Below are positions 13,597 through 16,963 of a stretch of 56,590 nt of DNA, piece by piece; position 1 is the stretch's first letter; each line of letters opens with the position of its first letter. The notes below the pieces were generated by a model. It searched no databases. It saw nothing but the letters and a program-made list of their open reading frames with translations, and was not told where the DNA came from. This DNA comes from Clostridium sp. Lineage in GTDB: Bacteria; Bacillota; Clostridia; Lachnospirales; Lachnospiraceae. The stretch is from positions 1-56,590 of the forward strand of contig JAMPFU010000004.1 of the NCBI GenBank assembly GCA_023664385.1. The letters are read 5' to 3'. The position numbers were made by a program, and so were the translations under genes.

Positions 13597-15153
13597 TTAT
13601 ATATTATCTATAATATCTATATCTCCAACATTGCAGATGATACTTGGAAGAACAATATATGTATATGCATGATACATACGCCTTCTGCTGTTAATAATCT
13701 GAATGTATGAATCCCTGCTGTGATACCCGAGCAAATCCTGTATCTCTAAGTAGGACATATCCTCATATGCAATTCCCATAATGTCTCCAAGCCTTATGAC
13801 AATGTCGCTGATAAGACCCATGCATTTTGTATACTCCTCTATACATTTTTCCGTGTCCGCTATGGAGCCGGAAATAAATTTTGACAGTCTGTCCGGGTCA
13901 AGCCCTATATGTGCTTCCTCAATATACTTCATAAGAATGTCAGGTGCAATGGAAATCGGCTTTTCTTTTTTAAGCTTTGACACATTTTTATTATGGGCGT
14001 TATTTTGTACCCTGCCTCGTATATCAATAATGCCCTTAAATGCATCCGTCTTTTTTTCATTTGCCCAAAATTTGCGGCTTACATCATATATAATCTCCCT
14101 GTGGCAGCTTTCACCATTGGCAAGTGCCTTAAAAAATCCCTGCGCTATAATCACACACCTATCGGTAAATATCAAATTCGTCATTCCGTATTTTTTTACG
14201 GCACCAATCATCTCCTCAATATACTTAAAGAGCTTCATGGAATTTTTTTCGTCACATGGCTTTTTTTCCGAAATTTTTTCCCTGATACCGGATAGGGTTT
14301 CCATATCCGCATCAATATCCCTGCTTATATCATCATATTCGTTTATCAGTGCCTCTGCCTGTTCGTACAAGCCCTTCCGGAGCTGTCCTATCTCATCTAC
14401 TGTAAAATCCTTTTCTATGAGCTTATTCAGCTTTTCCTCCGTGTCAAAGCCATATGAGCTTATAATAATTTCCTGCTCGAAATATTTTTCGGATTTTTTT
14501 AATGTCCCGATTTCCTTTTCGTAATAATTTTCAAGCTTATACTTTAACAGCTCATCCAAATCCTTCGGCATAAGCGCTCTTACAATGTTATTGATGGAGG
14601 CATACGGCTTGTTGCCGACCTTTACTATTATTTCCTCCGTTGTACCCTCGTAACCAAGCCTCTTTATACTCTCGCTCCACGCTCCCGTATCTACAAGCTC
14701 CTTGTATATTGAATACTCAAGTGGTCTTGGGTTTTCTCCAAGCATCCGTTCCGTGTCACAGTAGGAGCCGTCAGAAAGTACATGGTGAAAATCCAGATAA
14801 TTGCATTTTGCAAATGCCTTCGTATCTTTAAATTCCTTATCGCTCATCGGACGCGCCATGCCCACAACGGCTTCCAGCTCTCTTATTTTACCGATTTCCG
14901 GTTCACCGTCATCCTTTATGACAAACTCAATTTCAAGCGCTTCATGTTCGACAAGGAGACTCTCTATCTGCTTCACGGATTTTATAAGCATTTCCGTATT
15001 GCAATCCAAAAATTCCCTTGAAACGTTGTGCGCCACCCATTTTGTTGTTTCGGGTATCAACGTGCCGTCCGCCTCGTATCTCTCATCATACCTTATCACA
15101 TAGTACGGTCTGTTTTGAAGCGTATCTCTTGTATATATCTTCCCTGAAATCAT
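13597..15153 (-). pseudogene. PEP-synthase-like protein, internal fragment lacking both end domains
   Basis: The 518-residue frame is open, but only the middle of a PEP/pyruvate-phosphate-dikinase-like protein is recognisable. It starts at the second half of an ATP-grasp domain (SGKIYTRD, then LEIEFVIKDDGEPEIGKIRE near residue 95). It continues with the family blocks LGENPRPLEYSIYKELV and VGNKPYASINNIVRALMP, then a helical region. It ends at VLPSIICNVGDIDIID, where relatives continue into the swivelling PEP-utilising domain with the catalytic His. The N-terminal nucleotide-binding lobe is also absent, because the HAD gene occupies that space. The frame continues upstream to 15255 only as overlap with HAD; the ATG at 15153 has a weak GGTGAT site. 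It is either a truncated gene still read or a domain-level relic. Confidence 0.5.
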
Positions 15154-15178
15154 TTGTATCACCAGCCTTACACTATAA

Positions 15179-16003
15179 TCAGCCACATAAAATAAACTTA
15201 TGGATAACCTCCACGATGCCGTCCTCGTCACAGGAGGCAGTAATATAGTCGGCATTATCCTTTATGATTTGCTGTGCATTGTCCATTGCAGCACCCACGC
15301 CTGCAAATTTTATCATCGTTAAATCATTAAAGCCGTCACCGCAGCATATACAGTCCTTTTGCTCCATATCTATGATGTCAAGGAGTATGGAAAGACTTTT
15401 TGCCTTGTCAACATCCTTTGTCGTAATTTCAATAAAATATTCCTCGGAGCGAAAAACATTAAGCTCACTGCCTAGCATATGGGCAAGCTTTTTTTCATGC
15501 TCTGCCGCAAGCTCCGGCTCTGCCGTAAGAAGGCATTTTACCATGTCAAAATCAACATAGCCGATAAAGTCCCCAACCTGCTTAATCTTAAGGTTATTTA
15601 ACCTTGCCTCATATTCCATATATGCATCCACAGGTGTTCCCGTAACGGCATAGCTGTCCTGATAGGTAATCATTCCGATATTATTTTCCCTTGCATATTC
15701 ATAGATAGGCTTTGCATAACGCTTCGGTATCATGTTCTGATAGACTGCCTCATGGGTCCTACAGTTTAAAATAAGACCGCCATTATAGGAAAGTGCATAT
15801 CCTCCAAAGCTGTCAAGCTCTATGGCTTTTGCATACTGCTCCATACCACAGTAGGGTCTTCCTGAAGCAAGTGCAACAATATGTCCCTTTTTTTGTATAT
15901 CAATAATTGCATCTCTTGTCTTCTTTGTTATTTCCTTTTTTGAATTGACAAGCGTTCCGTCAATATCCAACACCAAAAGCTTTTTCTTTTTTGTATCTTC
16001 CAT
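15179..16003 (-). CDS. Cof-type HAD-IIB family phosphatase
   Basis: The 274-residue protein has HAD motif I LVLDIDGTLVNS (nucleophile Asp 13), motif II in ALASGRPY, and the motif IV region CCGDGFNDLTMIKFAGVGAAM. A IIB-type cap lies between residues 85 and 200. Relatives dephosphorylate sugar phosphates, FMN or pyridoxal phosphate; the substrate cannot be read from sequence. It is followed by the PEP-synthase-like fragment and transcribed divergently from the small RlmH-like gene at 16120. Confidence 0.85.
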   Translation of the reverse strand: MEDTKKKKLLVLDIDGTLVNSKKEITKKTRDAIIDIQKKGHIVALASGRPYCGMEQYAKAIELDSFGGYALSYNGGLILNCRTHEAVYQNMIPKRYAKPIYEYARENNIGMITYQDSYAVTGTPVDAYMEYEARLNNLKIKQVGDFIGYVDFDMVKCLLTAEPELAAEHEKKLAHMLGSELNVFRSEEYFIEITTKDVDKAKSLSILLDIIDMEQKDCICCGDGFNDLTMIKFAGVGAAMDNAQQIIKDNADYITASCDEDGIVEVIHKFILCG

Positions 16004-16119: not shown

Positions 16120-16521
16120 ATGGAAATTATACTACACATTCAGGCAAAAAAGCTTGACCGTCAATTTAACAGTGCTGTAAATGAATATATAAAAAGGCTT
16201 TCTCCCTTTGCCGCCGTTAAAATAAACACGCATAAGGACATTCAAAATATTCCCCTTCAGTCAGGCTCCTACATTATAAATGTAAACCCGTCCCATCCAC
16301 TTATATCATCCACATACATGGCTGAAAAAATAAATGATATATGTGTATCAGGCTATTCAAGAATTGAGCTTATTGTTTCAAGCAGCTATTCTTATGCCAA
16401 AAGCAATTTTGATTTCGGCATCTCATATATGGATATGGACAGCCAGCTTGTGCTTGTTGCACTGACGGAACAGCTTTACCGTGCCTTCACAATTTTAAAT
16501 AACATTACCTATCACAAATAG
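16120..16521 (+). CDS. Divergent RlmH-like SPOUT paralogue (tail-bearing partner)
   Basis: The 133-residue protein is recognisable as an RlmH relative by its ends. NEYIKRLSPFAAVKI (residues 21-35) matches the family's N-terminal EYxKRLSP block. TEQLYRAFTILNNITYHK at the C-terminus matches the family tail, which ends in YHK or YHR. The middle is degenerate: the SAM-binding glycine loop is replaced by LIVSSSYSYAK (84-94), and the PHQLMR block by DSQLVLV. It therefore probably cannot bind SAM alone. It has its own promoter and ribosome binding site and overlaps the 3-prime end of the convergent rlmH gene by 17 bp. That gene has the loop but lacks the tail. The proposed role is as an obligate partner in 23S rRNA pseudouridine methylation; this is inference. 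Confidence 0.75.
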   Translation: MEIILHIQAKKLDRQFNSAVNEYIKRLSPFAAVKINTHKDIQNIPLQSGSYIINVNPSHPLISSTYMAEKINDICVSGYSRIELIVSSSYSYAKSNFDFGISYMDMDSQLVLVALTEQLYRAFTILNNITYHK

Positions 16522-16963
16522 CAGCCTTCATACGCTCTAAAAGCATAACACGCATAAGCTGATGGGGAAAGGTCATAGGCGAAAAGCTAAGCTTAAAATC
16601 TGCTCTTTTTACCACAGCTTCATGCAAGCCCAAGGAACCTCCTATGACAAAGGTAAGGGTGCCGCTCATTTTGTCCTCTGCATGTCTTACAAATAAGGAA
16701 AAATCTCCTTCATCAACGGTCTTTCCTTCTATACATAAGGCAACAACATAATCCCTGCTTCCAATATGGGACAATAGCGCCTGCCCCTCCATTTGCTTAA
16801 TTTTTTCATTCATGCGTTCGCCTGCCCCTTTGGGAATCGGGCAGTCATTTACAGTGATAAGTCTTATATCCATTTTCTTTTTTATTTGAGCAACATATTC
16901 ATCTATTTTGTCCCTGTAATAGCTTTCCTTTACATTGCCCACAGTCAAAATGTTAATAATCAT
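16505..16963 (-). CDS. rlmH: RlmH-type 23S rRNA pseudouridine methyltransferase, tail missing
   Basis: RlmH methylates N3 of pseudouridine 1915 in helix 69 of 23S rRNA. This 152-residue copy keeps the SPOUT SAM-binding loop TFVIGGSLGLHEAV (104-117) and FKLSFSPMTFPHQLMRVMLL (123-142). It then ends ERMKAAICDR instead of the usual LYRAF...YHK tail. Its N-terminal EYxKRLSP block is also eroded (EYVAQIKKKMDI). No frameshift downstream restores the tail: the sequence after its TAA is antisense to the convergent paralogue. The missing blocks are exactly those kept by the gene at 16120-16521. The ATG overlaps the stop of a possible 28-codon upstream ORF. Confidence 0.85.
   Translation of the reverse strand: MIINILTVGNVKESYYRDKIDEYVAQIKKKMDIRLITVNDCPIPKGAGERMNEKIKQMEGQALLSHIGSRDYVVALCIEGKTVDEGDFSLFVRHAEDKMSGTLTFVIGGSLGLHEAVVKRADFKLSFSPMTFPHQLMRVMLLERMKAAICDR

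What the first reader, a model, noticed from the sequence alone, without database searches (positions are those of the whole stretch)
16120..16963. Convergent, complementary pair of RlmH-like genes: candidate heterodimeric 23S rRNA methyltransferase
Seen: two RlmH relatives face each other and overlap by 17 bp. The minus-strand copy keeps the SAM loop (FVIGGSLGL) and TFPHQLMR but has lost the C-terminal LYRA...YHK tail and most of the EYxKRLSP block. The plus-strand copy keeps EYIKRLSPF and EQLYRAF...YHK but has lost the glycine loop and PHQLMR. Known: RlmH is a SPOUT homodimer whose active site is built from both protomers, and the C-terminal tail is needed. Inference: the two subunits specialised, one binding SAM and the other supplying the tail, so neither works alone. 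I know of no described split RlmH. Reciprocal loss is hard to explain by random decay.
Basis: partly seen in the sequence, partly recalled or inferred. Interest (0 to 1): 0.88.

Follow-up and report, generated by a model that had tools for sequence, protein, structure and literature searches.

The report
Two-gene heterodimeric RlmH ribosome methylase
In some bacteria a small ribosome-modifying enzyme that normally works as two identical copies appears to be built from two different, mutually dependent proteins, one holding the methyl donor and the other supplying the catalytic tail, and in two related cases the tail-supplying gene lies in inserted DNA that itself cut off the host enzyme's tail.

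Summary
Observation confirmed; interpretation supported by genomics, untested at the bench. The genome's only two RlmH genes are A, without the catalytic tail (16505-16963, -), and B, without the SAM pocket (16120-16521, +). A+B pairs occur in 50 of 907 genomes surveyed, 30 of 37 in the genus; five congeners have one complete RlmH instead. No surveyed genome was seen with a complete RlmH plus B; one genome reached by name (Paenibacillus) has both. The losses are reciprocal and follow the division of labour published for RlmH (PMC5430550): A keeps the SAM pocket, B keeps K25, R26, R142 and Y152-H153-K154. Both genes are under purifying selection and model as RlmH folds. B forms one clade; A falls in several places. 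In G316 and Lutispora saccharofermentans the same junction sequence replaces codon 152 of rlmH with a stop, and a 93%-identical B lies about 14 kb downstream; in the latter a serine recombinase adjoins. B may therefore have begun as a mobile tail donor. Nine searches of the held papers found no such enzyme.

The parts
16505..16963 (-). Subunit A: RlmH with intact SAM pocket and no catalytic tail (152 aa)
   Evidence: ORF; PF02590 135 bits, profile 1-140; AlphaFold pLDDT 95.4, best PDB matches RlmH structures
16120..16521 (+). Subunit B: RlmH paralogue with catalytic tail and partner-side arginines, SAM pocket lost (133 aa)
   Evidence: ORF; PF02590 58.1 bits, profile 1-154; AlphaFold pLDDT 95.4, best PDB matches RlmH structures
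16505..16521 (.). 17-bp overlap of the two convergent 3' ends; A's last residues are read antisense to B's YHK codons
   Evidence: the same 17-bp overlap in 11 of 33 convergent pair loci

Best explanation
A and B are the two obligate subunits of a heterodimeric RlmH, the 23S rRNA pseudouridine-1915 N3-methyltransferase. A binds SAM. B takes the place of the partner monomer of the normal antiparallel homodimer and supplies the substrate-side residues (K25, R26, R142, K154) and the catalytic tail (Y152, H153), so an AB dimer has one complete active site while AA and BB have none. Shown here: the two genes, no other RlmH, reciprocal residue loss, co-occurrence, purifying selection on both, RlmH folds. 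Inferred: that A and B bind each other, that AB methylates Psi1915, that neither works alone. Evolution (inferred): a SAM-dead paralogue, B, arose once and spread; in hosts that had it the resident rlmH lost its redundant tail and then other partner-side residues.
For: Only two RlmH genes in the genome. Pairs in 50 of 907 genomes, 12 family codes. In 37 A proteins G103, G104, G107, L72, I74, P128, H129 and R133 are kept 37 of 37, R26 and R142 2 of 37 each, Y152-H153-K154 0 of 37; in 38 B proteins K25, R26, Y141, R142, I146, Y152, H153, K154 are kept 38 of 38 while G104, G107, P128, M132 and R133 are kept 0 of 38 and H129 about 1 of 38. Koh 2017 puts SAM on one monomer and R25, R26, R142, R154 and the tail on the other; E138, Y152, H153 and R154 mutants were inactive though dimeric. 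dN/dS 0.05-0.19 for A (16 of 17 comparisons estimable) and 0.06-0.26 for B (15 of 17). Both models pLDDT 95.4, RlmH fold.
Against: No experiment and no dimer model. E138, assigned to the partner-side triad, is kept by both (37 of 37, 38 of 38), and K42 and R43, assigned to the SAM side, are kept by neither. A and B were sorted by the glycine loop and the YHK end, so those two features are circular. One named genome, Paenibacillus alkaliterrae, has a complete RlmH and a B. G403 has B alone at a contig edge and G317 a B fragment alone. The helix-69 target was not found in the draft genome (the 23S gene is probably not assembled).
Confidence: 0.87

Rival explanations
1. A alone is the active methyltransferase, with another general base in place of Y152; B is a pseudoenzyme that regulates it or binds ribosomes on its own.
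For: A keeps the whole SAM pocket and E138. In an engineered mixed dimer of another SPOUT enzyme one working subunit was enough (PMC4409310, passages).
Against: A lacks every tail residue whose mutation abolished activity in E. coli, and B was found wherever A was found in the genus (30 of 30). In the rows examined B keeps exactly the residues that A lost.
Confidence: 0.06
2. A and B form a heterodimer, but the pair has moved to another RNA target and Psi1915 is unmodified or modified by another enzyme.
For: B lost most SAM-pocket residues and a stretch around E. coli residues 41-59, so the RNA face may differ.
Against: The partner-side RNA-contact residues K25, R26, R142 and K154 are invariant in 55 of 55 B proteins, and no other RlmH is present.
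Confidence: 0.05
3. The pair is two decaying copies of one gene and has no joint function.
For: Both are below the cut-off of NCBI's RlmH equivalog models.
Against: Purifying selection on both, invariant columns over 34 diverse B and 34 diverse A proteins, recurrence in 50 genomes.
Confidence: 0.02
4. On origin only: the pair arose by ordinary tandem or inverted duplication of rlmH and divergence, without a mobile element.
For: No recombinase was seen by eye beside the pair in the ORF lists of the genus (L288, L289) or of other families (L285, L290-L293, L302, L303, L305, L306). Long branches can draw all B proteins together in a tree.
Against: B is one clade (100/100) while A falls in several places among complete RlmH proteins. 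G316 and L. saccharofermentans have A proteins 57% identical but B proteins 93% identical and the same junction at codon 152.
Confidence: 0.45

Closest known systems
RlmH (YbeA, OrfX), PF02590; PDB 5TWJ, 4FAK, 1NS5, 1TO0, 1VH0
   Same: Fold, SAM pocket in A, catalytic tail and partner-side residues in B; composite active site built from two chains (PMC5430550)
   Different: Two different genes in place of one; each chain keeps one half of the active site; neither passes NCBI's RlmH equivalog cut-offs
mt-LAF5/6 SPOUT heterodimer of the Trypanosoma brucei mitoribosome (PMC12123411, passages)
   Same: A SPOUT methyltransferase pair made of two different chains
   Different: Eukaryotic mitochondrial assembly factors, a different SPOUT family; I saw only two passages about it and no statement of split active-site roles
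Enzyme plus catalytically dead paralogue, such as AdoMetDC and prozyme of Trypanosoma brucei (PMC6221367, abstract start in the listing)
   Same: A dead paralogue makes the active heterodimer
   Different: There the partner activates; here, by inference, it supplies half of the active site. TRM6-TRM61 (PMC5007650, abstract start) is a two-subunit tRNA methyltransferase of another fold class (recalled)
SCCmec and the Enterococcus cassette chromosome (PMC6222049, passages)
   Same: Serine-recombinase elements that insert in the 3' region of rlmH
   Different: From recall those elements leave a working rlmH; in the Lutispora group the YHK codons are lost and a second subunit lies in the inserted DNA

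Membership tests
RlmH (PF02590), A and B | Match to the family profile over its curated cut-off | tested here: met
   A 135 bits, B 58.1 bits, cut-off 27
RlmH (PF02590), A and B | NCBIfam RlmH equivalog cut-off | tested here: not met
   Best for A 150.3 of 172 bits, for B 55.3 of 172 bits
RlmH (PF02590), A and B | RlmH knot fold | tested here: met
   Predicted models, best Foldseek PDB matches are RlmH structures; the knot itself was not computed
RlmH, chain A | SAM pocket (GG loop, H129) | tested here: met
   37 of 37 A proteins; 52 of 52 for G103, G107 and H129
RlmH, chain A | Catalytic tail Y152-H153-R/K154 | tested here: not met
   0 of 37
RlmH, chain B | SAM pocket (GG loop, H129) | tested here: not met
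   G104 and G107 0 of 38, H129 about 1 of 38
RlmH, chain B | Catalytic tail Y152-H153-R/K154 and R142 | tested here: met
   38 of 38, 55 of 55
RlmH enzyme | Single gene, homodimer | tested here: not met
   Two divergent genes and no complete one in the genome; quaternary state itself not testable here
RlmH enzyme | N3-methylation of Psi1915 in 23S rRNA | not testable with these tools
   Needs rRNA mapping or an enzyme assay; helix 69 not found in the draft genome
SCC-like element in rlmH (G316 and Lutispora saccharofermentans only) | Insertion in the 3' end of rlmH | tested here: met
   Shared junction from the last base of codon 151, 2 differences in 41 bases; in G316 the phosphoglucomutase gene that follows rlmH in G412 and G255 lies about 16 kb away
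SCC-like element in rlmH (G316 and Lutispora saccharofermentans only) | Serine recombinase next to the junction | tested here: inconclusive
   Present in L. saccharofermentans, 88 bp downstream; none recognised in the G316 insert, part of which is withheld
SCC-like element in rlmH (G316 and Lutispora saccharofermentans only) | Both attachment sites defined | tested here: inconclusive
   Left junction clear; one weak candidate for the right end

The most novel reading that the evidence does not exclude
B is a mobile active-site donor: an integrative element whose attachment site lies in the codons for the catalytic tail of rlmH carries a SAM-dead RlmH paralogue that restores the enzyme in trans as a heterodimer; after the elements decayed the pair became the only RlmH of whole lineages, several times over.
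Probability: 0.5. Interest if true: 0.92.

Novelty: new variant of a known kind. Interest (0 to 1): 0.87.

Why it matters
RlmH is a minimal enzyme in which two identical chains must form one functionally unequal active site. Here evolution appears to have separated the two roles into two proteins, so each half can be mutated and assayed on its own, and the half-of-sites model of Koh et al. becomes directly testable. It would be a natural bacterial SPOUT heterodimer; I found none in the held papers. The sampled genomes hold stages from 'only the last three residues missing' to full interdependence. If B is element-borne, a mobile element repairs in trans the enzyme that its insertion breaks. 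Neither gene passes NCBI's RlmH equivalog cut-offs, so pair-bearing species may be annotated as lacking RlmH.

Tried and rejected
Third RlmH in the genome: none. Decaying pair: rejected on selection and conservation. Assembly artefact or contamination: rejected for the window, as the pair recurs in 30 of 37 congeners. Helix-69 pattern in the own genome: no match, uninformative. Plasmids: 11 of 11 and 20 of 28 matching records were listed; each is labelled rlmH, or has no label or no annotation; none was opened. Viral contigs: one confirmed relative, near a contig end, not read further; the junction sequence had no match. Right attachment site: one weak candidate, not claimed. A-B distance correlation r = 0.86 over 34 pair loci, 0 of 2000 permutations as high, but without a species control it is not specific.

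Limits of the census. Match rows were printed only for the best-scoring genomes; for the rest I used the number of matches and the E-value, and for the class also a profile of 34 B proteins. In one search nine B genes score 132 bits or more, all in genomes already known, but two known B genes (G575 113 bits, G463 104 bits) score within the range of complete RlmH (up to 121), so a divergent B could be missed; seven genomes with two matches there and one (G272, G286, G287, G300, G327, G421, G563) were not read. Among low-scoring single-match genomes a tail-less A with an undetected B is not excluded. Not counted as pairs: G403 (B alone at a contig edge), G317 (B fragment), G095 (complete RlmH and a 40-residue contig-end fragment), and single RlmH genes that are split, frameshifted, cut or at contig edges (G236, G257, G267, G365, G367, G516, G542, G592, G866). 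G872 has two fragments or copies of the complete type. Three of the five congeners with a complete RlmH are 71-80% complete, so absence of B there is weak.

Rows dropped: L048-A, L036, L045 as partial; 56 of 177 rows left out of the careful tree (to save time, or for long branches: among them L102, L105, L042, E. coli); the quick tree (159 rows) held those four and also had B as one side of a branch (support 89) and A needing four changes. In one search, 12 complete proteins with other tail letters were labelled A and one (L249) B by my script; I disregarded these 13 labels (80 = 57 complete + 13 + 10 with a true B).

Full report
What is there. Window 16120-16521 (+) and 16505-16963 (-) are two open frames that meet tail to tail with a 17-bp overlap. 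Both match Pfam SPOUT_MTase PF02590 (58.1 and 135 bits, cut-off 27). The minus protein, A (152 aa), covers profile positions 1-140; the plus protein, B (133 aa), covers 1-154 weakly. Neither reaches a cut-off of NCBI's RlmH equivalog models. The draft genome (3.17 Mb, rated 100% complete) has no other PF02590 match.

Co-occurrence. In the genus 30 of 37 genomes have A plus B and no complete RlmH; five (G180, G214, G223, G226, G231) have one complete RlmH and no second match; two (G229, G232; 79% and 64% complete) have no match (sequences read). G204 has a second B on a 4.4 kb contig. Outside the genus: 7 of the 198 other genomes of the family sample (detail), 9 outside the family in the class sample (detail), 4 outside the class in the phylum sample (detail). 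That is 50 of 907 distinct genomes in 12 family codes. Cases that do not fit, and the limits of this census, are in Tried and rejected. By name (80 best of 537 loci kept) the pair was also found in Youngiibacter fragilis, Clostridiales bacterium COT073, a further Lachnospiraceae MAG and, as a near-complete A plus B, Lutispora saccharofermentans; Paenibacillus alkaliterrae has a complete RlmH and a B. There B lies on an 11 kb contig (GC 0.43; 0.38 around B, against 0.48 around the complete rlmH), so contamination or foreign DNA is possible.

Which residues each lost. Against 36 complete RlmH proteins, in E. coli numbering (the E. coli sequence was checked against PDB 1NS5), 37 A proteins keep L72, I74, G76, G103, G104, S105, G107, L108, T126, F127, P128, H129, Q130, M132 and R133 without exception; R26 and R142 remain in 2 of 37 each and Y152-H153-K154 in none. 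38 B proteins keep K25, R26, S81, G95, E138, Q139, Y141, R142, I146, Y152, H153 and K154 without exception; G104, G107, P128, M132 and R133 remain in none, G103 in 6. With more lineages (52 A, 55 B, 69 complete) B still has K25, R26, Y141, R142, I146, Y152, H153, K154 in 55 of 55, and A has G103, G107, H129 in 52 of 52, with R142 in 8 of 52. Of 74 positions conserved in complete RlmH, 30 are lost by B and kept by A, 11 the reverse, 7 lost by both, 6 kept by both, 20 intermediate; for the 54 clear ones Fisher's p is 0.0017, positions not being independent. The sorting used the glycine loop and the YHK end, so those two are circular; K25, R26, R142, L72, I74, P128, H129 and R133 are not.

Why this points to a heterodimer. 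Koh et al. 2017 (PMC5430550; abstract, Results and Discussion read) showed that RlmH sets the SAM pocket of one monomer against the C-terminal tail of the other. They place K11, K42 and R43 on the SAM monomer and R25, R26, R142 and R154 on the partner. E138, Y152, H153 and R154 mutants had no activity but dimerised and bound SAM, and only one SAM site per dimer binds tightly. A corresponds to the SAM monomer and B to the partner. By that evidence AA should be inactive for want of a tail and BB for want of SAM. Not a clean fit: E138 is kept by both, K42 and R43 by neither. The lysine next to K11 (position 12 here) is kept in 37 of 37 A and 0 of 38 B proteins.

Selection and fold. In 17 close comparisons dN/dS is 0.05-0.19 for A (16 estimable) and 0.06-0.26 for B (15 estimable), rough where dS is near saturation; one pair of complete RlmH gives 0.03. 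Alignments of 34 B and 34 A proteins gave models with mean pLDDT 95.4 each, and the best PDB matches of both are RlmH structures. No dimer could be modelled with the tools given.

Gene order. Of 34 genus and family loci holding both genes 33 are convergent, from a 29-bp overlap to 109 bp apart. Elsewhere the genes are on one strand and adjacent (G304, G601, G380), about 8 kb apart (G549) or about 46 kb apart (G264), so a shared transcript is not required.

Origin. In the careful tree of 121 proteins B is one clade (100/100; 100% of 200 bootstrap trees). The label A changes six times on the best tree, at least four times on the firmly supported branches, and in none of the 200 bootstrap trees is A one clade. 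I read these changes as repeated losses of the tail, since regaining it is unlikely. A of G344 sits beside a complete RlmH of its own family code, and so does A of G316. The bootstrap had not fully settled, and long branches could favour the unity of B.

A transitional form. In G316 and in Lutispora saccharofermentans (G908) A is a near-normal RlmH, R142 included, that stops exactly where Y152 should be. In relatives G412 and G255 a phosphoglucomutase gene follows rlmH within 200 bp; in G316 it lies about 16 kb away, with B between, close to its side. The 41 bases that start with the last base of codon 151 differ at 2 places between the two genomes, and a 460-bp stretch with B is 92% identical, while the A proteins are 57% and the B proteins 93% identical. 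In G908 a 704-aa serine recombinase starts 88 bp downstream of A, followed by type I restriction and methylase genes, a phage-type integrase and then B. GC is 0.29-0.30 around B against 0.40 around A. I read this as one kind of mobile DNA that entered two different rlmH genes, took off YHK and brought B. In G316 no recombinase was recognised, and part of its insert is withheld. Elements that insert in the 3' region of rlmH are known in enterococci and staphylococci (PMC6222049, passages). No recombinase was seen beside the pair in the genus loci read, so for the window this origin is inference.

Literature. Nine searches of the held papers showed no split or heterodimeric RlmH in the titles, abstract starts and passages seen. 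The 2022 SPOUT review does not use the word heterodimer (PMC9508554, passages). A SPOUT heterodimer is known from trypanosome mitochondria (PMC12123411, passages). In 2007 no inactive SPOUT subunit had been reported, though one yeast candidate was named (PMC1829167, passages). An engineered mixed dimer of a resistance SPOUT enzyme kept reduced activity with one working subunit (PMC4409310, passages). Subscription papers and preprints are not in the library.

Verdict. The pair is real, conserved and reciprocal. The best reading is an obligate heterodimeric RlmH (0.87), a new variant of a known enzyme, with a possible origin of B as a mobile tail donor (0.5).

Noticed in passing
L100 (G527) and L129 (G613), same genus code g378: A divergent single-copy RlmH whose tail reads YNK or YDK in place of YHK, so the catalytic histidine 153 seems replaced.
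   Followed up: no
L132 (G374), L134 (G458), L183 (G710), L177 (G727), L133 (G410): A complete RlmH plus a second 3'-end fragment or copy of the gene, in G374, G710 and G727 about 2.6 to 7 kb away on the same contig; looks like duplicated ends left by DNA inserting in rlmH.
   Followed up: no
L214 and L304 (Paenibacillus alkaliterrae, 11 kb contig): A B gene beside what look, by eye, like type I restriction-modification genes, in a genome that also has a complete RlmH.
   Followed up: partly
L297:584-596: GTACCATAAGTAA, which would encode YHK and a stop, about 21 kb downstream of the cut rlmH of Lutispora saccharofermentans; 0.01 expected by chance, but its flanks do not look like an element end.
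   Followed up: partly
L085 (G204, 4.4 kb contig): A second B gene in a genome that already has an A and a B; may be contamination of the MAG.
   Followed up: no
class sample: 47 of 391 genomes have no PF02590 match, 29 of them at least 90% complete with at most 5% contamination, so some lineages may lack RlmH.
   Followed up: no
window 13597-15255, minus strand: A 552-aa ORF without a Pfam match whose apparent relatives beside the pair in L288 and L289 are 676 and 785 aa long; its start overlaps the neighbouring gene, so the window copy may be shortened or frameshifted.
   Followed up: no
L098 (G542): A single RlmH gene that breaks off before the FPHQLMR motif in a genome rated 99% complete.
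   Followed up: no
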